A DNA stretch of 64,000 nt from Glycine soja (Eukaryota > Streptophyta > Magnoliopsida > Fabales > Fabaceae), in contig NC_041003.1 of assembly GCF_004193775.1 (NCBI RefSeq), positions 42,289,611-42,353,610 on the forward strand. Direction: 5' to 3'. Below, piece after piece: positions 9,917-58,989 of this stretch (positions within the stretch are counted from its first letter, which is position 1; every line of letters begins with the position of its first letter). Below the pieces are notes generated by a model that was not told the DNA's origin, searched no databases, and saw only the letters and a list, made by a program, of their open reading frames with translations. The position numbers and the translations under genes are program-made.

Positions 9917-9963
<47 letters not shown>

Positions 9964-12131: not shown

Positions 12132-13600
12132 TTATTGACTTTTGAATTTTCCTTTTTAAAACTATTCTATAAAATCATATAAAAAAAATTAAAAAGGAAC
12201 TAATGTTATTTTTGCATTGATGACCTAAGCTGGAAGTTTATTTTTTTTTTTTGTAATTGTTATTATAATTCTCAACTTAATTAATATTATTTTATCCCAT
12301 GTAATATTATACTGTCATATAGCATCTATATGTTTTATAAACAACAATAATATTTAGAAATAAGAACATGCATTATACTACTATAATTTGAAATTTTCTA
12401 TATTAAAATATATTTAATAAACTATTTTAAAAATAATAAAAATGATGATGTTGTTTTTGCATTGACACTTAAGTTGGGAATTTTTTCTTAAATTGTTATT
12501 ATAATTAAAAACTTAATTACTATTGTTTTTTTCTTATATTATATTATATTGTCATATAATATCTATATGTAATAAGCTATTATATTATATACTTTGTATT
12601 AGTTTCATGATTATTTAACTAAATTACATGGAAAAAATAACAGTAATAATTTTTTTAAAATAATATTTGCAACTGATATTTGATTTCAATATTTTGGTTT
12701 TAATCTAATTACTCTTTATATTTTAAATTATTCAAAGTATTATTTATAAATCCAATTATTTTTTATGATTTATTTCCCTGTAGTGCAAGGTTGGAAATCT
12801 AATCATAAATTTAATAAACATCATTGTATATATATAAGGGTAATTTTGATAAAATAATATAAATTTTTAATAAATTTAATATTATTAACTATATTAATCA
12901 ATTTTCTTAAAAAAATACAAATTAGTTAAGAGTCTTATATTTATGGATGGGGTGGGAATATAAATGTCTCATGTGTGCTCCCTAGTTAGTGATAGCAAAG
13001 TATCGGAAAGTATTACATGCTATACAATGAGCAGTAACTCCATTGAAAGAATAACTCCAAATCATGGTACAAGACTATCTTACAGTAACTTTATTTATTG
13101 TATAAAAACATTAAATGCTTCTAATGTTTCCATAAATATTAATCAATTAATTTTTATTTGATACTTTCTTCGTAAAATATTAGAAAGATTTGGTAGATAA
13201 CTTGTAAAAAGACATACATTACTCTAATGATTTAAAATTTGAAATAAATAATAAGGGTTTTTAAATTGTCAAAATTACATTTTAATATTTTTAATTATTA
13301 CCTTATCATTTAATTGACGACAAAGATAAAAAAACAAAATTTTTAATATATCAAGAATTTAACATAATTTATTTTATTAGAGATCTAAAATAAAATTTGA
13401 TAATTTATTAATAACTTAAAACATATTTTAGTGTACAATTTATATATTTAGATAAGTATTTATTATAAATTTTAGTTTTATAAAATAAAAATGTGTATAA
13501 GATATTAAGCAGGAAGATTTTCCGCCCCTTTCCGTCATTGTTGATTTTATTATAATAAATGTACTTGTGATTTTTTATTGATGAAATATCATTTATTTTT
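9900..13600. other. AT-rich intergenic region with simple and local repeats
   Basis: No gene supported. Contents: (TA)n at about 9921-9958; a possible Stowaway end (TACTCCCTCCATCC) at about 10,331 with no matching partner found; a nested local repeat at 10,461-10,610 in which TTAGAGTTGCTTAAATTATT and AATGTTACTCTGCCTTAG each occur twice; a T-run near 11,910; (AT)n followed by (AC)n at about 12,090-12,130; and two diverged copies of a roughly 130-bp segment (12,198-12,325 and 12,443-12,573) sharing TTTTTGCATTGA and GTCATAT-AGCATCTATATG-like blocks. Confidence 0.6.
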
Positions 13601-13659
13601 CTTAATTAGTTGTTGGGGGAAGAGATGTAGTCGTAATATCACAAGAAAAAGCTTGAAGA

Positions 13660-14009
13660 ATGGAGTCTGCTTTGTCCACAGTAGTGGAACGGGTGATGAA
13701 TTTTGTGTTGGACCAAAGTGTTCGGCACGTGGCTTACATTGTACGTTACGGGCAAAACGTTGATGAACTATACCATAATGTTAAGGATCTTGGACTTGAA
13801 AAAGAGAGGATAGACCATCAACGTGACGAAGCGGAAAAAAATCTACACAGAACTGAAGGCACGGTTAAAGAATGGTTTCAGAAAGTGGATGAGTTTGAGA
13901 CTACGGTGGAGAAGTTTAGGAATGACGAGGCTCACTGTTATGGAGGCAGTAACACTAAGCAAGTTCCACCACTAGCCTTGTCTGCCATTTGCTTGTGTGT
14001 TTTCAATCC
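13660..14009 (+). pseudogene. CC-NBS-LRR resistance gene: coiled-coil N-terminal fragment
   Basis: An ATG at 13660, just after a probable 5'UTR splice acceptor (TTAATTAG at 13,609), opens a reading frame of about 115 codons. It matches the coiled-coil start of soybean At4g27190/RPS2-like NLR proteins: MESALSTVVERVMNF, then a heptad-rich VDELYHNVKDLGLEKERI and VKEWFQKVDEFE. The frame stops making sense at 14,010, where an LTR begins. Matching LRR exons resume at about 27,772 on the same strand, so these are the two ends of one disrupted gene. The NB-ARC nucleotide switch (normally about 300 residues) is absent from the window. Confidence 0.8.
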
Positions 14010-14094
14010 TGTTAGGATATGTTAGAACAGAATTACAAATTCTGTTATTTCAATTATCAGTATAAATATAGCAGCGGTGTAATAAGGTAGGATA
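14010..14094 (+). mobile_element. 5' half of a short LTR (retrotransposon interrupted by CACTA)
   Basis: It begins TGTTAGGATATG and includes a TATAAATA box at about 14,061. It is split by the CACTA element and continues at 27,184-27,266, where it ends TATAACA. Without the insertion the LTR is about 168 bp and starts TGTTA and ends TAACA, as expected for LTR termini. It abuts the NLR coiled-coil fragment. Confidence 0.6.
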
Positions 14095-14127
14095 CACTAC
14101 TACAAAAGCAGCTTACTACGTCAGCAA

Positions 14128-14775
14128 TTCAACGACGGTTTCAAAGAAACGTCGTAGAAGCTCAACCGGTGGCATATCCGTAATTAAGGACTTCAGAACG
14201 ACGACGTTTGCCGCTACCCGTCGTAGACATCCAGCTGTTGTGGCGATTCGTATTTAGCTGGGTAAGTTACAAAGACGGTTTTTGTGGAAAAAACCGTCTT
14301 TGTATCGTAAATGGTAGCACGTGGCAAGCATTTGAGTGGGCCGACGAGTATACAAAGACGGTTCACTGGCGAGACCGTCGTTGTTTTTAAAGTACTTTCA
14401 CGTGGCAGCCACGTGATTTGAGGATTTAAAATCCAAAGACGGTTTTATCCAAATACCCGTCTTTGGATTGTTGGTGGTTTCACGTGTAGGCCACGTGATT
14501 GGAGGCGTTAAAATACAAAGACGGTTTTTGGCTAACACCCGTCTTTGTATGGTTACAGTATAAACACGTCATCAAAGACGGTCCTACCGCAACACCCGTC
14601 TTCGTATTGTTTGTGGTACACGTGGATTGCACGTGATTTAATGCGTTAACATACAAAGACGGGTTTACCCAAAGAGCCGTCGTTGTATGTTTAGTATAGA
14701 CACGTGGCGGCCCCCTGGTGGTTGTTGTTGTTGTCATTCAAAGACGGTCTTTGGTAGGACCCGTCGTTGTATCCT
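14128..14775. repeat. Left subterminal hairpin array of the CACTA element
   Basis: One terminal hairpin (AACGACGGTTTC...AAACGTCGTAG) is followed by seven inverted-repeat units of the form CAAAGACGG-N(10-16)-CCGTCTTTG or close variants. These start near 14,271, 14,351, 14,433, 14,516, 14,574, 14,653 and 14,738. Between them lie repeated CACGTG palindromes (for example 14,400-14,420 and 14,480-14,500). In En/Spm elements the subterminal repeats bind the TNPA-type protein; that role is inferred here. Confidence 0.85.
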
Positions 14776-14819
14776 AAATTGTATCACGTTTACGACACGT
14801 GCTTCTTACTATCTCTTAC

Positions 14820-15700
14820 GTTGGCGCGCCGTATCACTTCTTTTCTCCATTTTTTCGACTACTCATTATTGCTTTGGCGCCCTAGCTACACAGAGCATCT
14901 TCTCCGACAAAGACCATCGTCTCCGACAACCACCATCTCGTGTCCGTTGCGTCTCGTTCCGTTTGAAGCCGCCGCCGACAAAGGTATGGGTGCATTTAGC
15001 TCTTCTTTGTGTATCCCTTCATTTGCATGTGTTATATTCCTTCATTCATGTTATGATTCTGCTTCGTTTTCGTCTCAGGCCCTTGGTTGTTGTTGGTTGT
15101 CTTCATCGTGGTCTACATTGTATTGTTTAAGGAAGATAAGCTGGTTCCATAAGGTAAGATACATTGTGTGTTTTGTGAGAGAAAGTACGATTTTTGTCTA
15201 CCTTCTTATGTAATCTGCAGCTATGGGTTGTAAATTTTTTTTTTTTTTTGCGTTTCAGTGGGGTTTATGTGGGGCTCGTTGATGAAGCTGACTTGCGGGC
15301 AGTGAGTGAACGACTTTCGGGAACAGCCTGCTGCCATCCTTCATCAGTGGTGTGTCATCCTGTGCCACATTATCAGTTTCGTTGAGCGTTTGGTTTAAGT
15401 TAGTACACTGAACTTGATGAAACCCATGATATTTAATTTGAGCTTCAGATTTACTGTCTTCATGTTTAGTTGTGTCTGTAATTGAATAAACTGGAGAATA
15501 AATTATATATAAGTATGTTGTTTGTAAAAGTTTTATTTGATGAATTACATAAGTAAATTGATTTATTTTATAATTGCCGTTAAGATGAAACATTTTGGTA
15601 GTTGCAGTAGCTTGTATGAAATGTTATGAGTACTGATGGAAAGAGTTGAATCTCCCTCTGAACCCCTTTTCAACTCATCCCCTAACTAACTCTCTAATTA
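14820..15700 (+). other. Probable 5' leader region of the CACTA gene; no ORF assigned
   Basis: GC-richer than its surroundings. The stretch near 14,880-14,982 ends GCCGACAAAG before GTATGGGT, a plausible splice donor, and TTTTTGCGTTTCAG at about 15,259 is a plausible acceptor. The downstream transposase-like gene starts immediately after an acceptor at 22,037, so its untranslated first exon may lie here, with the captured fragments in its intron. Short overlapping ORFs here match nothing I recognise. Confidence 0.4.
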
Positions 15701-15718
15701 TTCAACTAACTATGGGGG

Positions 15719-17072
15719 TTACATATTAATACTGGTGATTTCTGATTCTGATCCTGGAAAGGTACTTGAGCCACTTCTAGAAGTCCTAGAATTAAAACTG
15801 AACATCTTAACTTCATCAAAAGAAGGGTAACCACTGTATGGTAAAGCACATTCAGCTCTAGACCACGTAGTAGCTGATCTTATTTTTCCAAGCAAACTCA
15901 TTTCCATGTTATCTTCATCAGACTCAATGCTGTCAATTTCCACCTCCAAAATTTTCACAACCTGCCTCATTGTTGGTCTAATACTAGGGTCTGTATGTGA
16001 ACACAACAAACCCAAATGAAGCAATCTCTCACCTTCCTCTATGGTGTATCCCCCTTTAGCCTTCAACCTTTCATCAACTGCACTGTGCAATTGGCCTTGC
16101 ACCATTAAGGACATCAGCCATTCAATTAGCCCCGGCTTATGTTCTTCAATAGGTCTTCGTCCGCAAATTACTTCCAACACCAATATTCCAAAACCAAACA
16201 CATCAGACAAAGTTCACGTTGTTCCTCTTTGAATCACTTCAGGAGCAATGTATCCTAGTGTCCCTATTACTCTTGTTGTGCTGACCACTTGTCCCTGATG
16301 ATCATGCATACGAGCCAATCCGAAATCTCCCAGCCTTGCATTCATGTCCTTATGAAGAAGAACATTGTTTGCTTGAATGTCCCTATGCAAGACCTTAACT
16401 TCCCAACCCTCATGCAGGTATAGAATCCCTGTGGCTACATTTTTCAAAACTTGAATCCTCTCTTCCCATGTTAGCATCATTCCCTCTTCACACTCAAATA
16501 TCCATTTGTCTAAACTTCCATTTCTCATGAAGTCATAAACTAGAATCAAATTTCCCTTTTCTTTTTTGCACCAGCCTCTTAATCCTACTAAATTTCTGTG
16601 CTTCATTCTGCCAAGGCTTGAAACCTCGGCCAAAAACTGTCTCATCCCTTCTTCCCTTTCTTGAGGAATTCTCTTGACTGCAACTTCTACCCCATGCAAA
16701 ACCCCTTTATATACCTTCCTGGTCCCTCCTACAGCAACCACATTCTCTTCAGAAAACCCCGTTGTTGCTGCATCGATCTCATGGAAACCTATCCTGTGAG
16801 GCCAATACTCCAGTTCCCAATCTTCAACTTCTTCTTGTGTCTTTCTTCTGCGAAGAACGAAAAATGCGACATAACCAAAACCAATGATTAACACAAACAC
16901 AATACTGGTGACACCTACCGCGAAAGCTTGTGCTCCAGGAAACCACTTTTTATGATGAACAAATGAAGGCAAATTTTCTGTCACTAATGCATCACCAATT
17001 GAAAAATTTGAATCACTAAAACTCCAAGCAAGAATCTTAGCACTGTCTATTATCCTCCCTGTTGAATAATTA
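15719..17072 (-). pseudogene. Captured L-type lectin receptor kinase (LecRK-VII-like) fragment
   Basis: The minus strand encodes the end of a legume-lectin domain (ILAWSFSDSNFSIGDALVTENLPSF), a transmembrane segment near 16,870-16,930, a basic juxtamembrane RRRK, and an almost complete Ser/Thr kinase. The kinase retains VAVGGTRKVYKG (P-loop), AVKR, HRDIQANNVLL, DFGLAR, an APEV region and VFGFGILVLEVICGRRP, with the C-terminus at 15,719. One in-frame TGA at 16,211-16,213 interrupts the C-lobe. The catalytic-loop Lys (HRDIK) is Gln here, and the lectin domain is mostly missing. Full-length members are about 650-700 residues and sit in the plasma membrane. The C-terminal coding part looks continuous, so its age of capture is low to moderate. 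Confidence 0.88.
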
Positions 17073-17165
17073 TTTGATATCAGTAGTGATGTTTTTGTTC
17101 TTCAACTGGGTGTTGACATCAGCCACAAACAGTTCACTTTTCCTGGTTCCTGATGCTGTAGTAGT
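17073..17165 (-). pseudogene. Captured VDAC (mitochondrial porin) exon fragment
   Basis: On the minus strand about 30 codons read [20 protein letters not shown] and then NKNITTDIK. This is the N-terminal beta-strand region of plant VDAC (family form: [20 protein letters not shown]). The match ends abruptly at 17,073, where LecRK lectin-domain sequence begins on the same strand, and it starts near 17,165 beside the ABCB piece. VDAC forms the outer mitochondrial membrane channel; only a small part of its roughly 276 residues is present. Confidence 0.75.
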
Positions 17166-17244
17166 CTTCGTATTGTGAAATTTGAAATTAATATTGTTGC
17201 AAAGGCAGAACAATGGAAATTTCAAAATATGAAAGTGCGAACTC

Positions 17245-18130
17245 ACATGTGGAAATCTATCAATGAATTTTGCTGCATTAGCAACTTCAGTGGCAGCTCT
17301 GATTTCTTCATTTGTTGCCCCATCCTTACCATAGGCAATGTTTTCTTTGATGCTGCAACTGAAGAGTATTGGTTCCTGACTGACAAGGCCTATAAGCTTT
17401 GGTTAAGGATTGACCCTAGGCCTAAACCAGCAACCACTCCATCTTGCATTGCAGTCCTGTAAGCTTTGGTTAAGGATTGATTGTATTGAGCTATAGCTTG
17501 ACTCTCGCCTGTAAATGATGCAACCTGCATTGGAGGAATGTGTATCTTTTATATTCTACTGTCTACAAACATGTAAAAGAACAAGATTGACAAGTTCCAT
17601 TATGAAGATTGGCATACTTGTCGAATTGAATCAATTGTGCGCTCTACTACAGTTGCTGCTTCAGAATAAGCTGCTTGTCCATGGGATGGCAACTTTGCAA
17701 AAGTAAAGCTCATCATGGAACCAGAGATTACAAGAGGTGGAATACAACATAGAAGGACAAGGGTTAGAAGCCAACCCTTGATGAATGCTATGACTAAACG
17801 TCCTAAAAAACATGCCACACACTATATGAATTTTCCTACTTGGTATTATCACACAAAGGATAAAGAAAAAGTTAATTTTTATTTTTATTTTAATTTTGTT
17901 GTAGAGGAAATAGTGATGATTTGGTAGTTGTAGCTTTTCATTAATACCTTCTCTCCCAGGGCTTCTTGAATAAGAAGTGTGTCACCTGACATCCTTCCAA
18001 CAACCTCACCAGTATTGGTTTCCTTGTCAAAGAAGCTGATATCTTGCCATAAAATTGCTCTGAGGTATAAGCCTCTTATTCTTGCTGCTTGTCTCTCCTC
18101 GGTGGACACCCAACAAGCAACCTCTGAGTA
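17245..18130 (-). pseudogene. Captured ABCB transporter fragment with internal deletion
   Basis: Minus-strand exons in order. 18,130-17,947 carries [35 protein letters not shown] and an EALGEK donor. About 17,818-17,620 carries FIKGWLLTLVLL and AAYSEAATVVERTIDSIRQ. 17,522-17,250 carries VASFTGESQAIAQYNQSL, GVVAGLGLGSIL, then directly [20 protein letters not shown] and [20 protein letters not shown]. Introns with GT-AG ends are kept, so genomic DNA was captured. About 200 residues, including the Walker A motif, are deleted between GLGLGS and LVSQEP. The piece belongs to the first half of an ABCB protein, whereas the fragment at 9.2 kb matches the second half. Confidence 0.88.
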
Positions 18131-18139
18131 ATCGTTTAC

Positions 18140-19900
18140 CCAACATATCCAACCATGAACACTCCTTCATACTTGATTCACTTCTTGTTTGTTCTTTTAA
18201 TTGGTTACTTTCATCCGATAGTCTTCATGATGCAAACCATTTACCTTTCAAAATTTAACCTATACCTCAATTTTTTTCTTGTGTTTTTCGTGTAATTATA
18301 TAATGAAAAGAGAATTTATCTCTAACTTAGAGATTTTTCATTTGTTGTTTGTATAAATGCTGTTAATAAAAATACAGAATATATATCCCTAACTTTTGGC
18401 TTGTTGTTTACATAAATGCTGTTACGAATCGAACGTGATTGAAATGAAGACAGTAAGACACAAAAATACTTTGTATAAATACTGAGGCTTGAAATACTCC
18501 TTGTGATTATTATTAAGAGAGTGCAAACTAAAGAAAATATTACTGAACTGAAATGGAACAAAACACTTTGGTTAAAAAACCTTAGACTTGATTTCAGCTG
18601 CTAGCCCTTATGGGTAATCCATTATTCATTATAGTAAATGTTAGTTAGTATCTTATCACATCATGCTAAAAATGATTAGGTTGCTCTAGATCAGTATTTG
18701 TCTATGATCTATGGTTCCGATTTATTTTATATGCAACTTATGAAATTATAAGACTGACTTGGTAGGGTTGAATTGTCGATCTAAATAAAAAGAATTTTGT
18801 TTCAACTTGAATCTAATTTAGGAACATCTCTAATAAATTATAAGGTTGTATAAATGAATTAAAATTTATATATTCTCTTTTATGATCTCTAATTAAACTA
18901 TGAAAAATTAATAAAATAACAACTAAGAAGCTGTCTATACTAGTATATTCAATTTTTTTCTTCCTACCCTTAAAAGTAAGAATCTGTCTTAATTTATTTT
19001 GCTTTTCTCAATACATCACAGGACCTATTTTTATTCATTATACCATGTGTTTTTTTATACATGTGTGTGACTTGCTTGGTCGGCTTTTCACTCAATGAAC
19101 AATACTAGTGGCACTGTTTTTTTAACAGTATTTTTATCATTGATTGAAAAGGTTTAAAATTTATTAGGTGATGAGTACTACTTCTAAATATATATACAAA
19201 AAGAGTTATTATATATACAAAAAGAGTTATTAAATGGCCTGTGTGATCCATCAAAATTCAAGATTTTTAATAATAATATATTTGAACCAATCATATAGAT
19301 AATGTTGAAGAAAAAGATCCAGATAAATACAGTGTTACTAAAATGATCTTCATTCCTATTAATTATTTAAGAACTTCAGTTTAATTCTAAACCATCATTT
19401 TGTTGAAGTTAGCAAGAGAAACAGAAGGGTACAGCAGAGGGGGCTTGGTGGGGGCTTGTTGTCTATTGTAGGGCAGGGTGGGGGCTTGTTGTCTATTGTT
19501 TGTTTTTGTTCCTGCTAGTACATGATTCCTTCTATGTATATCTTGAAGTACCTCTGGTACTTTTTATTAATATAAATTATCTTTGCATTTCAAAAAAAAA
19601 AATTTACTATTTAATACCTTCAACAACTAGAAAGAGTAAAAAAAAATAATAAGAACAGAAATACCAAGATATTAATGGATGTATAAAATTATGAATGATT
19701 CATATATTACTAGGATGTTCTTATATGATAGTATTGATATACTGTTATACAATGTACAAGATTTATTTGTTTAATCATAATAAGTGCAAATTATTGTGAT
19801 TGCTTTACTTAATGGATGTCTTACGATTGAATTTCATTGTGACACACAATATGTTATGCTTAATTTTGGACACCTTGTGGATTTTGCATTAATTTGTTGG
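18140..19900. other. Captured or filler DNA of unknown origin; possible LINE 3' end
   Basis: No coding match. At 19,400-19,606 a GC-richer stretch ends TTTGCATTTC followed by about 11 A, resembling a 5'-truncated LINE 3' end. Inside it GGGGGCTTGTTGTCTATTGT is present twice (near 19,450 and 19,480). Two copies of a TATATATACAAAAAGAGTTAT-type segment lie near 19,188-19,230. Confidence 0.35.
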
Positions 19901-19913
19901 ATATTTTGTGCAG

Positions 19914-20022
19914 TCTGGATGCTGTAAACCTGCAGAAGAATGCTAGTTTAGCTATGTGAATCCAACGACATGGACAAAGCCCACAAATGTGACTAATCAG
20001 AGCAATCCAATTGACTCTTGAA
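19914..20022 (+). pseudogene. Captured tetraspanin (TET8-like) exon fragment
   Basis: After an intron-like acceptor (TTTTGTGCAG, ending at 19,913) the plus strand reads SGCCKPAEEC, one in-frame TAG, then FSYVNPTTWTKPTNVTNQSNP. This matches the large extracellular loop of plant tetraspanins, with the conserved GCC(K/R)P motif. The similarity stops abruptly after SNP. The retained splice site shows genomic capture. Tetraspanins are four-pass membrane organisers of about 270 residues; this is about 35 residues. It is oriented opposite to the neighbouring captured kinase and transporter pieces. Confidence 0.8.
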
Positions 20023-20552
20023 TTTGATATTGAGTATTGAGGTGATTATTACATAACTCTCCTCATTAACCCGTGCTTAGGACAAGCTATATATAAGACC
20101 ATATAGGTATATACAGTTCGCTAAATATCTAAACATAGCAAATGATTACTACCTTTTTAATAAGTTGCTTTTTGACAATATTTTAGCTTTTTTTTTCTTG
20201 TTATATATGCTCTGATCTAATATGAAGTGGAAATTGAACTCCTGGTCCCAGAAAATCCTGTATTTAATCATCATAATAGTATTGTCTATGAACAAGCTGT
20301 TTTGCTTTATTTTTTTCTGGGTTGATTCTGATATGAAAGCATTGACTTGAACCTACTGATTTCAAAGTATATTATGTGCTTAAGTATAGTTCATGTGATA
20401 TTGAAAAATAATAAATTTGGTAGCTTTGTGTTTAATTTTCTTATAATCAGCAGTATGCAACTTGGATTAAAAAATTAAATTTCAATTTATTGTTGGTTGT
20501 AATTGATATGGTTAAGGACACTAGCATAACTCCTATCTTATAACTGTGAATT

Positions 20553-20890
20553 CAAGTATCCAAAGCTACCTTCCTCAAATAAAGTGCCTCAGATAAAACA
20601 ACCCCAAATGAGTACACATCTGATTTCTTGGTCAATTGATGCCTCCTGAAATATTCAGGATCCAAGTATCCAAAGCTACCTTTCAAGGGTGTACTAACAT
20701 GACCTTGATTGCGGATTTGATCTTTTGATAGCCACTTTGAACCCATTATCAATAACACCCTTGTAAACCTTTCCAAACCCTCCTACCCCTATCACATTTG
20801 GCTCATCAAAATTGTTGGTCGCTTGTTTCATCTCTTTTAAGGACAAATAACAGCACAATCCTTGAGCCATGGCTGATATGTTGGCACTAC
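20553..20890 (-). pseudogene. Captured CrRLK1L (FERONIA/HERK family) kinase fragments, rearranged
   Basis: On the minus strand 20,880-20,717 encodes the start of a CrRLK1L kinase ([50 protein letters not shown]). From about 20,716 it jumps to the activation-segment region ([39 protein letters not shown]). About 110 residues, including HRD and DFG, are missing at the junction. The sequence after SEAL is unrelated. CrRLK1L proteins are plasma-membrane sensors of about 850 residues. The N-lobe part is also duplicated immediately downstream (20,892-21,007). Confidence 0.85.
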
Positions 20891-21007
20891 CAACCCTCCT
20901 ACCCCTATCACATTTGGCTCATCAAAATTGTTGGTCGCTTGTTTCATCTCTTTTAAGGACAAATAACAGCACAATCCTTGAGCCATGGTTGATATGTTGG
21001 CACTACC
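20776..21007. repeat. 116-bp tandem duplication of the CrRLK1L N-lobe sequence
   Basis: Copy 1 (20,776-20,891) and copy 2 (20,892-21,007) start AACCCTCCTACCCCTATCAC and end TTGGCACTACC. They differ at very few positions (for example ATGGCTG versus ATGGTTG). The near identity indicates a recent event inside the CACTA element. Confidence 0.92.
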
Positions 21008-21039
21008 AACTAACTAAAAAAGGTGATTTTTCCTTAATT

Positions 21040-22036
21040 CATTCAGAATAATCGAATCATTCATTTTTAATAGGATTTTGATCGAAAACCAAACCAATTT
21101 ACCAATAGGTTCAGCAAAAGAACCTACTGAAGTCAACATTCATGCTCATCTAAACAACTACTTTCCAGCTTTGCCAAATACTTTACAACTCCTACGCAGA
21201 GGATTCAGGATGGCATTTATTGACAGAACATGACCAATATGAGATTATCTTATATGAGATTATCTTATATATAATTGAAACATATTATTCCTATGACATG
21301 AAGGACCAAATGCCTTAGCCAAACCATATACTTCAAGACTGCTAGTCACTTCAATAGACGATAGCAATATATCAACATAATTAATATTCATGGAGTCTAT
21401 GATGCCAATTTTAGATTTCAGTTTAAAAAAACTAATTGACACTAGATAAAGTAGCTCAATAGATATATAAGTTAAACTCAAAGAATTGGAATAATCTATG
21501 TCGGACTTTTTAACAACCAAGATATGATTGATACCAGAAAATACATGTCTTTCAAGTTTCACCATGATCCATATTATACTCAAGTTTAGAAAATAAAATA
21601 TATGTTTCATATATGCATAAATGTTATGCAACCACAGTTTTTCAATTTCAGGGTTAGGTTCATTCTTATATACCAAAAATTTGTAGATGATTAATAAAGA
21701 ATTCATCTCGTAGAGGCAACCACAGTTTTCTCATTACATGATGAATAAAGAAATAATCTCATAGAGGAAATCACACTTTTTCGATTTCAGGGTCAAGGCC
21801 ATTCTTGTATATTGGAATTTTGCAGATTATGTGTGTTTCTGTTTGAGAAACATGCTTTTCAATTTCAGAATAGGTTTCATTTTACTCTCTGAATGCAACA
21901 ATGTGTGTGTTTCTGTTTATGTGTATCATATATAAGTGCTGCATAACCACTGAATGCATAGAGAAACAATGCTAACAATTTGTGTGCAGTAATCGTTACT
22001 TGGTGACTACTTAAGACTGCATGTATTTTTTTTCAG
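21040..22036. other. AT-rich segment upstream of the CACTA gene with a diverged repeat
   Basis: No recognised gene. A 148-codon minus-strand ORF (21,260-21,706) has low-complexity, membrane-like composition and no family I know. A roughly 140-bp period repeat is visible: CAACCACAGTTTTTCAATTT...CATTCTTATAT at about 21,630-21,690 recurs as AATCACACTTTTTCGATTT...CATTCTTGTAT at about 21,768-21,820. A splice acceptor TTTTTTTCAGCAG precedes the downstream start codon. Confidence 0.45.
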
Positions 22037-22049
22037 CAGGGTCATTCGA

Positions 22050-25000
22050 ATGACGACACCCCCTCCATCTCCCACACAGTCCGAGATTCCTTCTGATGGG
22101 ACGTCTAGGAAAACTAGACAAGCCACTCGGCTAAGAAGGTTGACAGCAAGAACATTGGAGCAAGCAAGGGCAACAGTCAGTGTGAATCCAACGACTGGTA
22201 GAGGATCCGGACCTCACAAGGATCAGTTTCACAGTTACCTTGGAGTTGTGGCACGAGACAAGATTCCAATTGTTCACGCTAGCTGGAATGATGTACCTGA
22301 AACACTGAAGAACATGATATGGGATGACATATTGGTAAGTCCCTCATGCTGGTCATTTAATATTTGTTACACACATTCATGTTTATGCTTTTTTGTTTGA
22401 CACACATGTTTTGTAGGTAAAATTCGACATCCCCGAGGGTGATAATGCCAAAAAGCAGGTGATGTCAACTGTGGCAACGCGTTGGAGGCAATTTAAGTCG
22501 GCGTTGACAACTAAATATGTGTATGGTAACACTGACGGCCAAGCAAAAGATGATCCTTTGGTTAAATATGGCATTAATGAAAAAGATTGGGCCGAGTTTG
22601 CAAAAATGAGGCAAACCCCTACCTGGCAGGTTATTTCCAATTTTAATGTTTTGATTATGTTACAAACTGTTAATGCTTTTCCTTGGAATAAATGTTTTGC
22701 ATCATAGTTGACAAATGCTTATTTTTTGATTTCAAGGGGATACGGAAAAAGGCACAAGAAATTCAAAAGTATAATGACTCTCCGCACCTGTTGTCTAGGG
22801 GAGGCTATGAGCTGCTAGAAAAAAAATTAATGGCTGAAAAAAGGAAGATACGAGAAGAACAAGCCGCATTTACCGAGGACCCTTCATTGTACCTCCCACC
22901 ATCACCAATTTCTAGACACGAGAAATGGAAGAGTGCACGCACAAAACAATATGGCCAGATGACATCTCAAGCCGCCAAAGAAATTGCTGACAAAATTGTA
23001 AGCAACTCTTATCATTAATTGTTACTGACAAACAAATCAAAGTTTTAAATGACAACTTCCTTTATGCCTTGATCTTGTTTTGTGTTATATGAACAGGACT
23101 CTTTGGAAGAGCAAAGCAGGCAGGGCAGCATTGTGCCTTCCGGACGTGACGATATTTTGAACATGGCTATTGGAAGACCGGAGCATCCTGGTCGTGTACG
23201 TGGGGCTGGGACAGGGGTTACAGTTACGCAGTACTTTGGTCCATCATCGCGTCGGTCTACCAGTTCATCAAACATCACTGTAGAACAGTTGGCTAATATA
23301 ATTGGTAACCTAAAAGAAGAATGGCAAAGACAGGCTGAACAAGAAAACATTAAAAGAGAGGAGGTGTGGATGAGGAGGGTTGAAGAGGAAAAACAGCGCA
23401 CTATGGACACATTTAAAGGACAAATACAAGAAGCTATCAAGTTGGAGTTGTCACAAATTGTATCACAACATTCAGCCCCACTTCAGCCAAATGATATACA
23501 AGTATTAGCAGCAAGGGTAAGCACGAAGGGAAGCTGTGCAGCAGCAGAGACAAATGCATTAGCTAAAAAACCCTCTTTGTTGAATGGTGACAATGTCAGC
23601 CTGCATGTAACCGTTGAGAACTCCAACAAATTAGTGGCAGTGGGCAAACGGTGCGACAGTTTTGGCACCATCCACAACGTGCCCTATGCTGATGATGTTG
23701 TTCGCGTGAGTGTGGTGGAAGTTATTTTCGGTGATGCGGAGGTTCCAATCCCTACATCAGAAATAAAGTTTGTCAAAGAAGCTTTAGGTAGTTTTGTTCC
23801 ATGGCCAACACATTTGGTCAAACCCATCTTGCCTGAGGTACGTAATAACATTAATTCCTATAATTTAAAATGGTTACTTACGTAAGTCTTTTTTAAATGT
23901 TTTGTACTCCTGTAGGAAGCAGAGAAGGATGTGAGCTCACCATTGAAGACTGTTGAGGAGGAAAAGGCAGCTGAGGTTATTGATCCATTGGGAGAGTTGG
24001 TGAAGAACTTGTTCGACATTTACCAAAGGCCTGTTGAGGTGTCATGGGATGGTGCTAAATTTGGGATCAATAATGTCAAAGATGGCTTCTTCATCACACA
24101 CGCTGATGTGAGCGAGATAATATTAGGAGACAAGTGTTTAAACATCTCCATTCTACAGCTATGGCTTATGTAAGTGTATACCCATATTAGCTCAAACATT
24201 TGTACACTGTAGAATTGAGTTAGCTACCTTAAATAACCTATTAACTGTATTTTATGACACCATGAATTTTACATAGGTTTATTCATGATTGGAGTGCGAG
24301 CATTGGTTATGGACCATTGTATGGGTTCCTTGAACCTCAGTGTATCCACAATGCAAGCAGTAGACGTCAAGAGTGTGAAAATTACATTGGAAGGTGGTTG
24401 AAGGAAGCAGGAAAACAAATTTACATAGCACCTTATTTAAACCAGTAAGTTGAGCAAATAATGTTGGTCGAGTACGGTAATGTTTAACATATTGACTTAA
24501 TGAAGTATCTTTACCTGTTCAGGGCCCATTGGCAGCTCGTTGTATTGTGCCCAGGCGACAATGTAGTGGTTTGGTTTTGTTCTTTGAAGAAGAAGCCGGA
24601 TGCTGCCATCAAGGGTGCAGTAAACAGGTTAGTGCTGCCTCTACCGTGCCTCAATACTCCTACAGCAAACCACCAATGATCGTAATGCTTTGTTTCTATT
24701 TTGAAATTAGTGCAATGAAATCAGTCACCAAAACTGCAGAGGGAAAGCCACCTCAGCATGGGCCTCAGTGGATTGAAGCAAAGGTACATGTTTATTTAAA
24801 TTCCAAATGCCATATGGATGTCATTTCTGTTTGCGTTGACTGAATTCACAACGTAATGTGTGTGCGTATGTCGTGTAGAGTCATGTTCAAACAGGAAATT
24901 ACGAGTGTGGATACTATGTTATGCAATGGATATGGTGCATCGTAAGTGGTGGATTGAAGGATGACTGGATTCACGTATGTTTCTGATTATTGATTTACTT

Positions 25001-25193
25001 GTTAATGTAATTAGACGTCATTACTTTTTACCTGATGCTATGTCATTTACTAATAAATTCATATATACATGTGCAGTGGTTTTCTGATCGATCACCGCTA
25101 ACAGAAGAGACCATGACCACACTCCGGCATAAATGGGCGGCCTATTTTATCCAAATAAAGAAATGCGAACCAAGAAAAAATTTGATAACTTAG
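22050..25193 (+). CDS. CACTA-encoded TNP1/Transposase_24-DUF8039-Ulp1-like protein, intact
   Basis: Ten exons with GT-AG borders join in frame: 22050-22334, 22417-22629, 22737-22997, 23097-23837, 23916-24169, 24277-24444, 24523-24627, 24711-24783, 24879-24974, 25077-25193. They give 770 residues and a TAG stop. Residues about 45-255 resemble the plant Transposase_24 (Ptta/En/Spm) DNA-binding region ([29 protein letters not shown]). About 290-410 contains a charged, coiled-coil-like stretch. About 430-500 matches DUF8039 ([27 protein letters not shown]). About 580-740 is a C48 Ulp1-like cysteine protease fold with His643 ([10 protein letters not shown]) and Cys710 ([10 protein letters not shown]). 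The usual Asp after His is not obvious (VWFCSL where WFDSL is typical). The role is probably binding subterminal repeats and/or SUMO-related processing; this is inference. An upstream 5' exon is likely. Confidence 0.85.
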
Positions 25194-25199
25194 GAACAA

Positions 25200-26520
25200 T
25201 TTTCGTGTAGGCCAGAATTTTATTTGTCTGCTGAGAACAGTACATTGTTTAGATAACTTGAGTTGTATATTTAATTTAATTTTCTCTCAGCTTGAACAAT
25301 TTCCTATCCAACCCTTCAATGTGGCCGTGTGCCTTGAACAGTATATTGTTTCAGTTAATGCTTGAGTTGTATACTGAATTTAATTTTCTCTCTGCTTTTT
25401 GTTTCACTTAACATTTGATAACTAACTTTTTTGCTTGTACTTAATTGTCTATCATAATATTGTCGTGTCATTAACTTTTACTGCTACAATTGCTGACTTT
25501 AAACCCAGCTAGGTAACTTACACTCAGGGTGGTGCTGACAAGGACTACAAGGAGTGTTATGAATGTGGCTGATTTAGAGGTTCAGCTCCTCCAGAGCAAG
25601 AAAGGAAGACCAAGAGAAGAAGATCTAAGATAAGGAATTCCCAGCTTTTTCATTATTAATCCTTCTGTTATTTACATAGTATTTATAGATCCTAGGAAGG
25701 AATAATTTGCTTCTAGAATTGGTATAATCCTAGGAATATTACATAACTAATTCTGTTATGGCTGCTTCCCCTCAGATATGCAGCATCAGCAGGAGGATTG
25801 TGGAAGATTGCGTGAGCTGCAAAATTCTCACTAGATTCCTTCAGACGAAATCCTTCAAATAGGTGGGCTTTTTGACCTTTCTTTTGAGTATTATTTCCTT
25901 CTGCACCCCTGTGTTTGTGAGTTCACCCTCTGTCATTGCTGTTATGTCTCTGCTGCCCTCCATTGAAGCTTCTCTGTTCATAACAAGGAGGTACCCCCAT
26001 GCCACCTCCTTTGTTTAAACCTGCAGGTGACCTGAAATTACCATCAGGGTGGTGGTCACTTTGTTGTTCCTCTAAATTACCATATTTAAGTCTATGATCT
26101 ATTGGGTTTGTTTGTTCTTGTTGTTGCTACAGGGGGACACATCAACCAAGCTGTGACCTTCAACAGATCTTATTACAAGGTAATCACTTCAATGAACAAA
26201 TGGTTGAGTCACTAGGGATCCTTAATTAAGCTCTGTGTCTTAATTTAATGACTTTAAAATCAACAGACATTATATATCATGCATGTATCCTTCTAAGAAG
26301 CATTTTCATCTGCTTTTACGATTTTCAAAGTGCTTATATCATCTTTTTATTCCTTAATTATGTGCTCTTATCATTAAATTTGACTAATTAAATGTATATT
26401 TCTCCCGATTATTATGATCAGGTTCAAATTATAGGACAATTGTGCACGTACTATAACCTGAACAGCCATCCACAAGGCTTGGGTTAAAAATAAAACCGTG
26501 GAACCAGCACATTATTACTG
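25200..26520. other. CACTA interior 3' of its gene; unassigned captured-looking DNA
   Basis: No intact ORF. A GC-richer block at 25,520-26,060 looks like retroelement or exon sequence but gives no family I can name. The segment near 26,133-26,178 is described separately. The rest is AT-rich. Confidence 0.4.
26133..26178 (+). pseudogene. Possible captured aquaporin (MIP family) exon scrap
   Basis: After GTTGCTACAG the plus strand reads GGHINQAVTFNRSYYK before a GT. GGHINPAVTF is the first NPA loop of PIP aquaporins; here Pro is Gln (CCA to CAA). Only ten residues match, so chance or another origin cannot be excluded. It fits the pattern of captured exons in this element. Confidence 0.4.
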
Positions 26521-26547
26521 CACAATTTGCTGTTAAAAAAAAAAAAA

Positions 26548-27165
26548 AACATTCCACGACGGTTCTAAGGAAACTACCGTCGTAGAAACGTGATGTTTCT
26601 AAGACGGACCTACAAAGCAAACCGTAGTAGTATTAATACAAGTCTACGACGGTCCATGTCATACAACCGTCGTAGAACACGTTTATCTCAACGACGGTGT
26701 TGTTACGTGACCGTAGTAGTATTAACACCGTCTCTTACGACGGTCGTCCGCAACAAAACACCGTTGTAGTGATAGGACCCTTCTACGACGGTTCTGGGAA
26801 GACAACCGTCGTAGTCTGTTGTTACTTCTACGACGGTGGGGTCCCCATGCCCGTCGTAGTCTGTTGTTACTTCTACGACGGGGCTGTTGACAGCCGTGTT
26901 TGAATTGTGGACCTTACTACGACGGTCCTTTGGAAACAACCGTCGTAGAACAAGATTATGTCTACGACGGTGTTGTCCTTATGGCCGTCGTAGTCTCTAG
27001 TAAGTTCTAAAGATGGGGCTGACCGACAGCCCGTCTTAGAATTCTGTAATATCTATGACGGTTTTCTATAACCGTCTTTGAAAGCCATCGAATTTATTAC
27101 GTCGTCGCAGACAACGACGGTCTTCAACCGACGTAGTATACCCATTTAAACCGACGTTGAATTCT
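26548..27165. repeat. Right subterminal hairpin array of the CACTA element
   Basis: About thirteen inverted-repeat units, mostly CTACGACGG-N(8-16)-CCGTCGTAG, are spaced about 40-60 bp apart. The last few toward the end shift to other spellings (AAAGATGG...CCGTCTTA, TGACGGTT...AACCGTCTTTG, CAACGACGG...). The stems differ from the CAAAGACGG type that dominates the left end. Confidence 0.85.
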
Positions 27166-27180
27166 GCTTTTGTAGTAGTG

Positions 27181-27772
27181 ATATGAATGAAAATTTTCTT
27201 GAGTTTTCCCTTCTTGTCTCTAGAGGTACCGGTCCTCGAAGCCAGCTTCTTTTCCATCGTATAACAATTTGGTGCTTTCATTGAGCTCTAATGACTGCCT
27301 TCCATGGCTGCCATGCCAGTGCAAACCATCTCTTTTCACGACATCCTCTCCACACAGCCATCCATCAGCAACTACTTCTGCCGGAACTTCTACCTCTACC
27401 CCTGCCATCAACCATGTCCTCTCATTCTAGCCACCAAACCACCATGGACCGCCTTGAAGAGGCTGTGTACCACCTCACCCAGAACCTATCCACCATGACC
27501 ACCAAGATTTTGGAGATGAATGCCAAGCTCGATGTCATCCTTGACCGCCTATCCGCTTTCACACCCACTCCATTCCCTCCCAAATCACCCCCACCTGTGG
27601 AGACCATAATAATGGAACCACAGAACATAGACATCAACCTCTCCCGTCTTAGCTTCGATTTCACCACCACCACGTTCCACGTTGACAACACATCTTTGCA
27701 ACCAGTGGACACCATGAAGTCACCGCCAACAGATGATTCGCGAAGGTCACCTAAGGCTTCCGCAACACCAAC
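27181..27772 (+). mobile_element. 3' half of LTR, primer site and gag-like start of a truncated LTR retrotransposon
   Basis: 27,184-27,266 completes the LTR begun at 14,010 and ends TATAACA. Then TTTGGTGCTTTCATTGAG, a common legume LTR-element primer-site context, is followed by a coding stretch (27,411-27,772). That stretch starts MSSHSSHQTTMDRLEEAVYH and contains a coiled-coil-like LTQNLSTMTTKILEMNAKLD and a Pro-rich segment, typical of a gag N-terminus. The frame then runs into NLR leucine-rich sequence, so the rest of the element and its 3' LTR are deleted. Confidence 0.55.
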
Positions 27773-30700
27773 GGCAAGTTTTTGCAGCTATGGGAACTGT
27801 AAACTTAAATTCCCATAATTGGAAATATTGATTGTGAAAGAATGCCCCAAGATAGAAACATTCAGAGAGTCGCATAACAACTCCAAGGTTACAACATATA
27901 CTTAAAACTGATAAAGGAGAAAAGGATGTGAGATGGCAGTTGGAAGGTGACTTGAATGCCACCATACAAAATGTTTTCCAATACAAGGTACTTAATTTTG
28001 TTCATTCTTTCAAGAGTAAAGTATGTTTTTGTTCCATATAAAATGTTTCGTCCCATTTCAGTTCCTAAAAAAATTCTAGTTGTTGCTATTCATTTTCATT
28101 CAGTATGTTAACTCTGTTAGTGAATCTGCTTAATAGCAGACATGGTTGAACATGAAAGTTAACAGTTCAAACAAATTTGGATGTTATGAAAAATTAAATA
28201 AAATTCTAAATATCAATCCTTACCGACCCTCATAAATAATTAATTTCATATCTTTATTTATTATTTTGCGAGTGCAGATTTCGGCAAATGCAAGTTGTGT
28301 ATCAAGACTTGAACTTGACTGTGACCCACTACTACAAAGGATATGGCACGGCTCACTGTCGATCCCAGACTTGTGCTTCAGTAACTTGACACCTTGAATA
28401 TGTATGGGTTGGGTTTCTTATCAGATGTATTGCAGTTCGATTTACTTACTCTGTTACCTAAATTGGAAACATTGGATGTTCGAAGATGCGATCGTGTGAA
28501 AACCATATTTGATGTGAAATGTACCACCCAAGACAGAAAAATGAAAACAATGGAACCAGCAGCCCTCTTCCCCCTCCCTTTTCACCTGAAGATATTGACT
28601 TTTAAGTGGCTGCCTAATCTGGAGAATGTCTGGAATGAAGATCCTCATGGAATTCTAGGAATGCAACTTCTACAAGAAGTGCATATAGAGAAATGTGAAA
28701 GCCTTACCAGTTTGTTTCCTGCGTCAGTCGCCAAAGATCTTGTGAAACTTGAGGTGCAAGACTGCAAGGAATTGATGGAAATTGTTGCAGAGGATGATAA
28801 TGTGGATCCAAATGGAACAAATCTAGAGCTTACGTTGCCCTGTCCCTGTGTGAGGTCATTAAAGCTAAAGGGCTTGCCAAAGTTCAAGTATTTTTGCTAC
28901 TGCTCTCTGTGGTGTGACATTTTGAAGACATATACACTTCTAGAACCGCACACTGAGGATCAAGTCTGTATTGAAAAGGTACTATTGTTTTGCTAATTTG
29001 TCTTTGCCTGCAAATTGAATTTAATTGCACTACTTTTATGTGAATTGAATTGGCATCATTATGTTCAATATCAATGGTACGAACATGCTGTTGGTACACG
29101 TTGCAACAATAATATTTGAGGTTTGAGTTTTATTCTCATTAATACAGTCAATTACATAGATTCTCACACACACCATTGTACTTCATCATATATCATGTAT
29201 TAATGGTTCTCAAATAGTCAACTCTTTTTAATCAATCTCCTACCATCTAAAGGATTTTTTAATTATGATCTTCTCCATACGAACCACTACAACCTTCCTA
29301 ACGGTCTCATTTATCACTTTTTCCATCTTAAAAGTTTTAAACTCAATAATTTTTTTAGGCATATATGATATCAAATTGATTTGTTTGCACCTATGCATTG
29401 AAATAGTTAATTTGTTACGAATTATCAGGCATATGTTAGCTTGAAAGTTTCGTTATTTCATTGTATATAAAAGAGCTGGATCTTTAACTTCCCTAATTAA
29501 CCAGCTTTTGCTTGTGCTTTTTTCTTGGTTATTGCTTTCTCTTCGAAGCCTACTCCCAACTTACAGTGCCTGTCACTCAGGGAAAATGGACTGAAGATGA
29601 TTCGTCATGGAGAATTTCAGAGAAACCACTTACACAAGTTAAAAGTTCTTACTCTGTGCTTTCATATAGAGTTGGATACTGTATTTCCATATGAAATTCT
29701 ACAAGAGGTGCCAAATATAGAGAAGCTTGGGGTGTCTTGAAGTTCCTTCAAGGAGATTTTCTGCTGTCGAAGTCCTAATAATGTGGATTATACTGGACTC
29801 CTATTACAGCTAAAAGCATTACACTTGGAGTCCCTTGAGGATCTCGTTTCCATTGGGCTTGATAACTCTTGGATTGAGCCCTTTCTCAGAAATCTAGAAA
29901 CCTTGGAAGTAATGAGTTGTTCTGGTTTAAGAAACTTGACATCATCGCAGTTATGTTTCTCCAATCTGAATAGTTTGATTGTAACTGGATGCCATGGATT
30001 GATAAACTTGTTCAAGTCCTCAACGGCCAAAAGTTTGGCTCGACTCAAAACAATGAAAGTAGAAAAGTGAGTCAATTCAAGAGATAGTGTCTAAGGAGAG
30101 GGGTGAATCTGATGATGAGGATGAACAAATAATAAAATTTGATAAGCTCCAGTTTTTGTTTCTTGAAGAATTGGATCAGCTACGGTGCTTTTACCCTGGG
30201 AATTTTACTTTACACTTTCCATCCTTGAGGGAGTGTACTTAATCAACTGCCCCAGGATGAAAACTTTCAGTCCAATCAACAAAATAAATTCAACTGAGTG
30301 GTTTTTTTGACATATACGACACCCAAACAGGAATGCGATCTTAATCTTGCTGTGCGCAGGACGTTTGACGAAAAGGTACGTATCAGATCATTATCATTCA
30401 TTTTGTTTGTGTGAATTCGTATTTCGTGAAGCACCTAGACAGACAATTGCTCCTGATTTCTGTCAAAGCTCTAGTTTTTAATTTTCTTTTAAGAAAATTA
30501 ATATCTGTCGAATGATTTTAAAACAAGTGGATTCATTCTAGCTTCTTGCAACAACTTAGTTGTTTTATTTATTCTTCTGCATGTGCAGATTTCAGCGCAT
30601 GCAGGATTTGTATCTTGTCTTATACTCAGAGATAATCCGCTACTACAAGAGATATGGCATGACTCACTGCCTATCCCTGACTTGTGCTTCAGATACTTGC

Positions 30701-32336
30701 ACTCCTTGATAGTGGACGGGTGCCAATTTTTATCAGAGGTACTACCGTTCAATTTGCTTCCGCTCTTACCAAAATTGGAAACATTGGAAGTTCGAAAATG
30801 TGATTCTGTGAAAATCATATTTGATGTGAAATGCACTATAACACTAGACAGAATAGTGACAACTATGGGACCAGCTTCCTTCCCTCTCCCTTTTCCCCTG
30901 AAGAAATTGACTTTATCTGAGCTTCCAAATGTGGAGAATGTCTGGAATGAAGATCCTCGTAGAATTCTAAGGATTCAACTTCTACAAGAAGTGCATGTTG
31001 ACAAATGTGAATGCCTTGCTAGTGTGTTTCCCGCATCAGTAGCCCAAGATCTTGTGAAACTTGAAACTCTAGTTGTGCAACACTGTGAAGAATTAATGGC
31101 AATTGTTGCAGATCCAAGAGGAACAAATCCAGAGATTAAGTTCCCCTGCCTGAAATCATTGATGCTATTGGATTTGCCGAAGTTCAAGTATAATGGTATT
31201 TGTTGCATTCGTGACGCCACAATGACATTTGAGGTTTGGGCTTTACTCTCATTAATACAGTTAATTACATAGATTATTACACACACCATTGTACTTTATA
31301 ATATATCATGATCCGTACGAATTGAAGACTGGTATTAGGATTTATAATAACTCAAGCACCTTGTTCAACAACAGAGACCTCCTTAGTGCATAGGGTTCTC
31401 AACATTGTTTTCACATATTTTTGTTGAAAAAGTTGACTTCGTTAATTATTGGACATCTTTTAGCACCAAAGTTCATTGTTTCAATTATATATAAAAGAGC
31501 TGGATCTATATAGCTGCTCTAACCTGCTTTTGCGTGACTATTGGTTTCTCTGTGCAGCTTATGCCAAACTTGCCGCATCTGACACTCGTGAAAATGAACA
31601 ATAGATGATTTTACCTAGAAAATTTCAGGGAAACCTCTTCCACAAGTTAAAGGTTCTTACTCTGTTCTTTCATATTGAGTCCAATGTATTTCTAGAACAT
31701 GTGCCCAATATAGAGAAGCTTGTGGTGCACGATGGTTCCTTCAAGGAGATCTTCTGCCTTCCAAAGCTGAAAGTATTATGCTTGGAACCCCTTGGAGAAC
31801 TCATTTCCATTGGATTAGAGAACTCTTGGATTGAGCCCTTCCTAAGAAATCTAGAAACCTTGGAAGTAATGAGTTCTTTTAGTTCCATAAACTTGGTACC
31901 ACACACAGTGTCTTTCTCCAATATGACGTATTTGGAAATAAGCAGTTGCAATAGCCTGTTATATTTGTTCACATCCTCAACAGCCACAAGTTTGGTTCAA
32001 CTCAAAAGAATGGAGATAAAATGCTGCAATTCAATTGAAGAGATAGTGTCTAAGGAGGGGGGTGAATCACATGAGGATGAGATAGTATTTCAGCAGCTAA
32101 ATTGTTTGAATCTTTGCTAATTACAAAACCTCAAAAGTTTCTACATAGGGAGTTTAAGTTTCCCATCCTTGGAACAATTGTCAATAACCGGTTGCAATAG
32201 GATGGAAACTTTATGTCCAGGTACAGTAAAAACGGACAATTTGTTTGAAGTTAAACTTCAGAAGGAGACAATGGCTATCACATTGGAAATTGATCTCAAC
32301 ACGACGATGCGGAAGGAATTTCAGACAAGGGTATGT
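27772..32336 (+). pseudogene. LRR exons of the disrupted CC-NBS-LRR gene
   Basis: It begins SFCSYGNCKLKFP...LEILIVKECPKIETF, then EGDLNATIQNVFQYK before a GT at 27,988. Further exons carry irregular LRRs typical of At4g27190-like NLRs: 28,278-28,980 (FDLLTLLPKLETLDVRRCD, PNLENVWNEDPHGIL), 29,560-30,370 (LETLEVMSCSGLRNL), 30,589-31,220 (PKLETLEVRKCDSVKIIF) and 31,560-32,335 (NSWIEPFLRNLETLEV, ISSCNSLLYLFTSSTA). Stops and frameshifts are frequent: TAA near 27,812, TGA near 29,738, a 2-nt loss near 30,071, TAA at 32,118-32,120. The family recognises pathogen effectors in the cytoplasm; this copy lacks NB-ARC and is not functional. Confidence 0.85.
28278..32336 (+). repeat. Tandem duplication of an LRR exon pair (unit about 2.3 kb)
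   Basis: Block A (28,278-28,980) matches 30,589-31,220, sharing for example ATTTGATGTGAAATG and GAATGTCTGGAATGAAGATC. Block B (29,560-30,370) matches 31,555-32,335, sharing TCTTGGATTGAGCCCTT and AATCTAGAAACCTTGGAAGT. Order and spacing are kept, with an offset of about 2,310 bp (about 2,000 bp at the 3' end). Divergence is moderate, so the duplication predates the decay. Confidence 0.85.
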
Positions 32337-58984: not shown

Positions 58985-58989
58985 TATAA

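What the first reader, a model, noticed from the sequence alone, without database searches (positions are those of the whole stretch)
14095..27180. 13-kb CACTA element carrying fragments of at least five unrelated host genes
Perfect 17-bp inverted ends and an ATA target duplication enclose pieces of LecRK-VII, VDAC, ABCB, tetraspanin, CrRLK1L and perhaps an aquaporin. Retained splice sites in the ABCB and tetraspanin pieces show capture from genomic DNA. Gene capture by CACTA elements is known (Tgm-Express1 in soybean), but this particular set and its order may be undescribed. Antisense or chimeric transcripts from the element could produce small RNAs against the five parent genes.
Basis: partly seen in the sequence, partly recalled or inferred. 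Interest (0 to 1): 0.88.

Follow-up and report, generated by a model that had tools for sequence, protein, structure and literature searches.

The report
Soybean CACTA transposon with captured genes
This is a 13-kb soybean-lineage jumping gene that carries broken pieces of about six unrelated plant genes next to an intact gene of its own, and closely similar pieces are annotated elsewhere in soybean genomes, so it shows a known way of shuffling genes at work in a little-studied transposon family.

Summary
14095-27180 is one CACTA element: perfect 17-bp inverted ends, ATA duplication, and subterminal repeats at its ends (21 of the window's 23 ACGACGG motifs). It holds fragments of a LecRK VII.2, an ABCB transporter, a CrRLK1L kinase and, in short pieces, VDAC, tetraspanin and a PIP aquaporin. 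Introns kept in the ABCB piece show capture from genomic DNA. CrRLK1L-ABCB-VDAC-LecRK in this order is one predicted G. soja gene (P0132), possibly this same locus. P0121, P0123 and P0170 are further LecRK versions sharing derived residues: one capture, then multiplication. Of 120 listed relatives of the 770-aa gene, 22 bear names of 12 host genes; LPA3 and PANK2 fusions occur on two chromosomes of one assembly, so capture looks habitual, though these are gene models. Precedents exist: Tgm-Express1, wheat 3B CACTAs, grapevine CACTA-ULP. I file it as a new member of a known kind. Small-RNA effects are untested; the whole-genome search did not complete.

The parts
14092..14094 (.). target site duplication ATA, left
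14095..14111 (+). left terminal inverted repeat CACTACTACAAAAGCAG
14130..14800 (.). left subterminal repeats (ACGACGG / AAAGACGG, paired as short inverted repeats)
15722..17065 (-). captured LecRK VII.2 fragment (end of lectin domain, TM, kinase, 3' end), one in-frame stop, catalytic-loop K to Q
17073..17165 (-). captured VDAC fragment
   Evidence: recalled reference; present in G. soja gene model P0132
17247..18124 (-). captured ABCB transporter fragment, exons with introns kept, internal deletion with a 21-bp local duplication (17393 / 17460)
19914..20018 (+). captured tetraspanin exon start, preceded by an AG acceptor (GTGCAG, by eye)
   Evidence: recalled reference
20564..20962 (-). captured CrRLK1L kinase fragment, middle missing; 116-bp tandem duplication 20776-20891 / 20892-21007
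22050..25193 (+). intact 10-exon gene, 770 aa: C-terminal Ulp1 (C48, SENP-like) domain, weak Transposase_24 match; many relatives carry PF26133 (DUF8039)
25528..26179 (+). captured PIP aquaporin pieces (25528-25554, 26002-26028, 26132-26179)
   Evidence: recalled reference
26554..27126 (.). right subterminal repeats (CTACGACGG in both orientations)
27164..27180 (-). right terminal inverted repeat
27181..27183 (.). target site duplication ATA, right

Best explanation
A non-autonomous CACTA element of a Glycine CACTA-ULP family. It keeps its ends and an intact TNPA/ULP-type gene, but no TNP2 transposase was seen in it; much of its length is host DNA captured piecewise from genomic copies of about six genes. 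After capture the array, or parts of it, was multiplied. Shown: ends, TSD, intact gene, introns in the ABCB piece, residues shared by several versions of the LecRK piece against donor and outgroups. Inferred: that the 770-aa protein binds the subterminal repeats, that TNP2 acts in trans from a related element, that the multiplication was by transposition, and that capture happened during repair of breaks left by transposition (template switching, or fusion of neighbouring elements). The captured kinase is not a working gene: it has a stop and has lost the catalytic-loop lysine.
For: Ends, TSD and repeats. Intact gene; Ulp1 domain by Pfam (21.4 bits, cutoff 20.7); all 9 Foldseek PDB hits with E up to 0.001 are SENP1 or SENP2 (TM-score by target 0.46-0.53, model weak, mean pLDDT 61). 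Relatives P0084 and P0105 carry PF13963 and P0099 PF13952, domains that I recall as parts of CACTA TNP2 proteins. ABCB exons and introns against P0241. P0132 with CrRLK1L-ABCB-VDAC-LecRK in the order of the window's minus strand. LecRK versions: L282 in all 5 that cover it (window, P0132, P0121, P0123, P0170) and G357 in all 4 that cover it, against P0122, P0124, Spatholobus and Phaseolus; the changed 3' end (S, I, M at 457, 458, 460) in the window, P0132, P0121 and P0123. The window and P0121 share the VDAC/LecRK junction. P0004 and P0006 end in the aquaporin piece followed by translated subterminal repeats like those within 26676-27007.
Against: No DNA of a second copy could be read, so other copies are seen only through translated gene models. 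P0132 may be this same locus in another accession (349 of 351 LecRK residues equal). P0123 and P0170 come from short unnamed contigs (2318 and 1583 bases). Sites 155, 193 and 295 conflict among the LecRK versions. Short direct repeats, read as repair scars, are not clearly more frequent in the element than elsewhere in the window (7 against 4, 4, 10 and 1 in four control stretches; a Markov control gave 0.175 on average); only their position at breakpoints speaks for repair. TNP2 absence rests on Pfam scans of 16 of the 19 stop-to-stop ORFs of at least 90 aa in the element and on tblastn with family tails, not on a profile search of all six frames. The Transposase_24 match is below cutoff.
Confidence: 0.85

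Rival explanations
1. Composite: several nested or adjacent insertions (CACTA, retrotransposons, segmental duplications), the fragments having arrived by ordinary duplication rather than by capture.
For: The element lies beside a cluster of RPS2-like LRR genes with tandem duplications.
Against: One TSD and one pair of perfect ends enclose everything; the CrRLK1L-ABCB-VDAC-LecRK order recurs in P0132, and P0121 shares the VDAC/LecRK junction and the changed 3' end while being a distinct version.
Confidence: 0.08
2. The array is an expressed chimeric gene: the minus-strand CrRLK1L-ABCB-VDAC-LecRK reading frame of P0132 is a real transcript and perhaps a protein, or a source of small RNAs against the parents.
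For: A genome annotation joins the pieces (P0132). Tgm-Express1 pieces are spliced as exons (PMC1947982, abstract and passages).
Against: P0132 is a gene model; the stretch with the window's in-frame stop is missing from it. Kinase residues are lost (G128R and K243Q against the donor). No RNA data seen.
Confidence: 0.15
3. The host-gene names on relatives of the 770-aa gene are annotation mergers of an element with neighbouring genes, and the family is not specially prone to capture.
For: All are gene models. SCPL26 fusions lie on chromosome 10 and KIN-14Q fusions on chromosome 17 in both G. soja and G. max, as a merger with one neighbour would; the two ornithine aminotransferase fusions may be one locus in two G. 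soja assemblies.
Against: LPA3 fusions lie on chromosomes 15 and 17 of one G. soja assembly and PANK2 fusions on chromosomes 7 and 9 of one G. max assembly; WDR91 fusions on G. soja chromosome 3, G. max chromosome 17 and a further G. soja contig (chromosomes read from locus tags and contig lengths). The LPA3 and WDR91 fusions run from family into host part in the same way in each copy printed.
Confidence: 0.25

Closest known systems
Tgm-Express1 (soybean CACTA in the wp allele; PMC1947982, abstract and passages)
   Same: Glycine CACTA carrying five unrelated host gene fragments with introns and exons.
   Different: 5.7 kb with other genes (unknown protein, CDC2, fructose-6-phosphate 2-kinase, malate dehydrogenase, cysteine synthase); the word Ulp1 does not occur in that text. 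Its subterminal motif is that of the Tgmt* family (TTGGCAG / AATCTTACAG in Tgmt*, PMC2613891 passages); neither occurs in the ends of this element.
Grapevine CACTA-ULP families (Cactavine-2, -3, -4, -5, -13; PMC2528002, passages)
   Same: CACTA with an ULP domain; two Cactavine-5 copies also hold part of a captured PPR gene downstream of the transposase ORF.
   Different: The paper describes rice proteins with both Tnp2 and ULP1 domains; here no TNP2 was seen and about six host genes are represented.
Wheat chromosome 3B CACTA families (PMC4290129, passages)
   Same: One family makes most captures (104 of 140), and one captured gene recurs in several copies.
   Different: Monocot families; candidates there were genes flanked by two elements of one family, checked for target site duplications.
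Pack-CACTA of Arabidopsis, rice and maize (PMC8903248 and PMC13317346, passages)
   Same: Non-autonomous TIR elements holding gene pieces; [quoted passage not shown]
   Different: The Pack-TYPE class is defined without a transposase match; this element keeps an intact transposon gene of another kind.
Kaonashi / VANDAL MULEs with ULP1 (PMC13317346, passages)
   Same: Transposon gene with a Ulp1 domain of unknown role.
   Different: Mutator superfamily, not CACTA.

Membership tests
CACTA (En/Spm) superfamily | Terminal inverted repeats beginning CACTA | tested here: met
   17 of 17 bases
CACTA (En/Spm) superfamily | 3-bp target site duplication | tested here: met
   ATA / ATA
CACTA (En/Spm) superfamily | Subterminal repeats in both orientations | tested here: met
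   21 of 23 ACGACGG at the ends, 11 and 10 on the two strands
CACTA (En/Spm) superfamily | TNP2-type transposase gene (autonomous members only) | tested here: inconclusive
   none in 16 of 19 stop-to-stop ORFs of 90 aa or more nor by tblastn with tails of P0084, P0105, P0099; no six-frame profile search
CACTA-ULP | Ulp1 (C48) domain in a transposon gene | tested here: met
   PF02902 21.4 bits against cutoff 20.7; SENP1/2 by Foldseek on relative P0001
CACTA-ULP | Protease activity | not testable with these tools
   of 120 relatives the recalled motifs could be read in part: nucleophile Cys in 65 of 65, Gln in 48 of 49, expected acid position Cys in 47 of 48
Pack-CACTA (gene-capturing CACTA) | Host coding DNA between the ends | tested here: met
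Pack-CACTA (gene-capturing CACTA) | Moved together to more than one place | tested here: inconclusive
   several LecRK versions share derived residues, but their DNA surroundings were not read
Pack-CACTA (gene-capturing CACTA) | No match to a transposase | tested here: inconclusive
   weak Transposase_24 match, E 0.017, below cutoff
Tgmt* family of soybean Tgm elements (with Tgm-Express1) | Tgmt* subterminal motif (TTGGCAG with AATCTTACAG) | tested here: not met
   0 of 6 TTGGCAG in the window lie in the ends, AATCTTACAG absent from the window (motif from PMC2613891); the divergent Tgm1 motif was not tested

The most novel reading that the evidence does not exclude
A Glycine CACTA-ULP family is a habitual gene-shuffling platform: copies lack the transposase gene, keep an intact DNA-binding/SUMO-protease-like gene, take up host DNA again and again on both sides of it, and lend that gene's exons to new transposon-host fusion proteins. 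In the predicted fusions with LPA3 and ornithine aminotransferase (and by eye KIN-14Q and one SCPL26 model) the join falls at the end of the second-last exon, as if its splice donor were reused; in WDR91, PANK2 and proteasome fusions it falls elsewhere. Such fusions then spread to several chromosomes.
Probability: 0.3. Interest if true: 0.68.

Novelty: new member of a known kind. Interest (0 to 1): 0.47.

Why it matters
It gives a readable case of repeated gene capture with probable donors and several daughter versions recognisable, so the order and mechanism of capture can be tested by comparing breakpoints. It also warns that a sizeable share of predicted Glycine proteins of this family (22 of 120 listed) carry host gene names that may come from transposon capture, which pollutes gene catalogues. 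SoyTEdb lists 65 CACTA elements with clear boundaries (PMC2830986, passages), while 493 of the 7980 database candidates scored match the 770-aa gene (the best 120 were listed, and one protein is not one element).

Tried and rejected
Whole-genome search for other copies: nine requests, none answered. Viral contigs: one scan with P0001; one stretch matched a pattern but encodes no relative. Rfam on 13000-28500 at gathering thresholds: nothing. Pfam on the VDAC, tetraspanin and aquaporin pieces and PDB on the VDAC and aquaporin pieces: no hit. Pfam on nine further ORFs of the element: one weak match, NAD_binding_6 at E 0.053, taken as chance. Short-repeat enrichment as proof of template switching: rejected as proof, since control stretches of the window have 4, 4, 10 and 1 against 7. 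Papers: DUF8039 in none; CACTA with SUMO protease and transposon in none; Glycine soja with transposon and gene capture in none.
Full report
What is there. The stretch 14095-27180 begins and ends with the same 17 bases in inverted orientation and is flanked by ATA on both sides. The motif ACGACGG occurs 23 times on both strands of the 64-kb window, 21 of them within the two ends of the element. The left end also holds seven short inverted pairs of the form AGACGG...CCGTC; the same strict pattern finds none in the right end. These are the marks of a CACTA transposon.

Host. The 770-aa protein encoded at 22050-25193 matches 493 of 7980 scored candidates at E up to 0.001; each of the 120 listed rows is named Glycine soja or Glycine max, the best at 97% over the full length. 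The window is therefore most likely from Glycine; which of the two species I cannot say.

The gene that was missed. Ten exons with GT-AG introns give an uninterrupted 770-aa reading frame. Pfam finds a Ulp1 protease domain at its end (21.4 bits, cutoff 20.7) and a weak Transposase_24 match below the cutoff. A model of the near relative P0001, built with 48 further sequences, is weak overall (mean pLDDT 61), but its nine PDB matches with E up to 0.001 are all SENP1 or SENP2, human SUMO proteases. Where motifs that I recall could be read among 120 relatives, the nucleophile is Cys in 65 of 65, the Gln is kept in 48 of 49, and the place where I expect the acidic residue is Cys in 47 of 48. This is a lead only. 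Some relatives carry PF13963 (P0084, P0105) or PF13952 (P0099), which I recall as domains of CACTA TNP2 proteins.

Captured pieces. LecRK: 430 of 442 residues identical to P0122, a G. max protein with lectin-exon sequence before the shared part, and 395 of 442 to P0125, a full-length LecRK with a G. max chromosome 13 locus tag. ABCB: 158 of 177 and 48 of 49 residues identical to G. max P0241; intron sequence stands between the exons, about 124 codons are missing, and at that deletion 21 bases are duplicated. CrRLK1L: two pieces, best PDB match FERONIA, with a 116-bp tandem duplication. VDAC, tetraspanin and aquaporin: short pieces, scored only against reference segments from memory (scores 120, 142 and 68 against the highest of 2000 shuffles, 55, 56 and 44). 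They reached no Pfam match, and the VDAC and aquaporin pieces no PDB match.

The array is not alone. P0132, a G. soja gene model of 583 aa, joins CrRLK1L, ABCB, VDAC and LecRK in the order of the window's minus strand. It equals the window at 349 of 351 LecRK residues, so it may be the same locus in another accession. P0121, P0123 and P0170 are other versions; the last two come from short unnamed contigs. Against the donor candidate P0122, P0124 and proteins of Spatholobus and Phaseolus, the versions that cover the sites share L282 (5 of 5) and G357 (4 of 4), and the window, P0132, P0121 and P0123 share a changed 3' end; the window, P0132, P0123 and P0170 further share T114, R128, Q243 and H250. 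Sites 155, 193 and 295 conflict, so the branching below that is not settled. The window and P0121 also share the VDAC/LecRK junction. The simplest reading is one capture followed by multiplication. R128 and Q243 hit the glycine loop and the catalytic loop of the kinase (motifs recalled), and the window copy has a stop, so the piece is not a working kinase.

A habit of the family. Of the 120 listed relatives of the 770-aa gene, 22 bear the name of a host gene, 12 different names in all; 21 of these 22 have a stretch of at least 40 residues outside the family, the exception being P0112. P0002, P0004 and P0006, close relatives, share the aquaporin piece of the window; in P0004 and P0006 it is followed by translated subterminal repeats, and in P0002 by a proteasome piece (Pfam E 1.2e-9). 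LPA3 fusions lie on chromosomes 15 and 17 of one G. soja assembly; PANK2 fusions on chromosomes 7 and 9 of one G. max assembly; WDR91 fusions on G. soja chromosome 3, on another G. soja contig of unknown assembly and on G. max chromosome 17 (chromosomes read from locus tags and contig lengths). The three WDR91 models printed run alike from family into host part, and so do the two LPA3 models and the two ornithine aminotransferase models printed. These are gene models, and mergers with neighbours remain possible, above all for those seen on one chromosome only (SCPL26, KIN-14Q, perhaps ornithine aminotransferase).

Mechanism. Shown: CACTA ends, capture from genomic DNA, several related versions of one captured piece. 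Inferred: the 770-aa protein acts on the subterminal repeats as TNPA does in En/Spm; TNP2 comes from another element; capture arises in repair. The review PMC13317346 (passages) describes another path, in which neighbouring Pack-CACTAs lose facing ends and form a hybrid; nothing here separates the two. Short direct repeats are not in clear excess over control stretches of the window (7 against 4, 4, 10, 1).

Known or new. Gene capture by CACTA is known in soybean (PMC1947982), in wheat (PMC4290129, 140 events on one chromosome) and in a grapevine CACTA-ULP family (PMC2528002); all seen as abstracts or passages. The listings of my searches and the parts read of eight papers (passages of seven; abstract and outline of PMC4938662) showed no description of this array or of this Glycine family; I did not read the papers whole, and most subscription papers are not in the library. 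I therefore file it as a new member of a known kind.

Changes after checking. Counts and wording were mended: 124 for 125 codons, ORFs scanned 16 of 19, the splice-donor claim narrowed to the fusions that show it, chromosome claims limited to what locus tags give, and the Tgmt* motif searched. No probability needed changing.

Noticed in passing
9165-9921 (+): Remnants of an ABCB-type transporter with a stop, of another subtype than the captured piece (about 60% to P0241 over 48 residues), 4 kb left of the element.
   Followed up: partly
13657-14094 and 27184-27818: The element seems to sit in an LTR-retrotransposon-like sequence next to a CC-NBS-LRR N-terminal piece (both recognised by eye, from recall; no Pfam support); no partner repeat of the flanks in the window.
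   Followed up: partly
28253-32120: Tandem copies, about 2.0-2.3 kb apart, of RPS2-like LRR sequence (PF23247).
   Followed up: partly
3162-5651 (+): 829-aa open frame with a reverse transcriptase domain (RVT_1), a non-LTR-type candidate.
   Followed up: no
58401-58987 and 63411-64000: Direct repeat of about 590 bases in pieces that are 93-100% identical, about 5.01-5.03 kb apart, like an LTR pair cut by the window's end.
   Followed up: no
41948-42388 (-) and 51758-52207 (+): ORFs matching SufBD_N (just below cutoff) and tify domains.
   Followed up: no
22050-25193, whole family: The expected acidic residue of the Ulp1 active site reads Cys in 47 of 48 relatives where the recalled motif was found.
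   Followed up: partly
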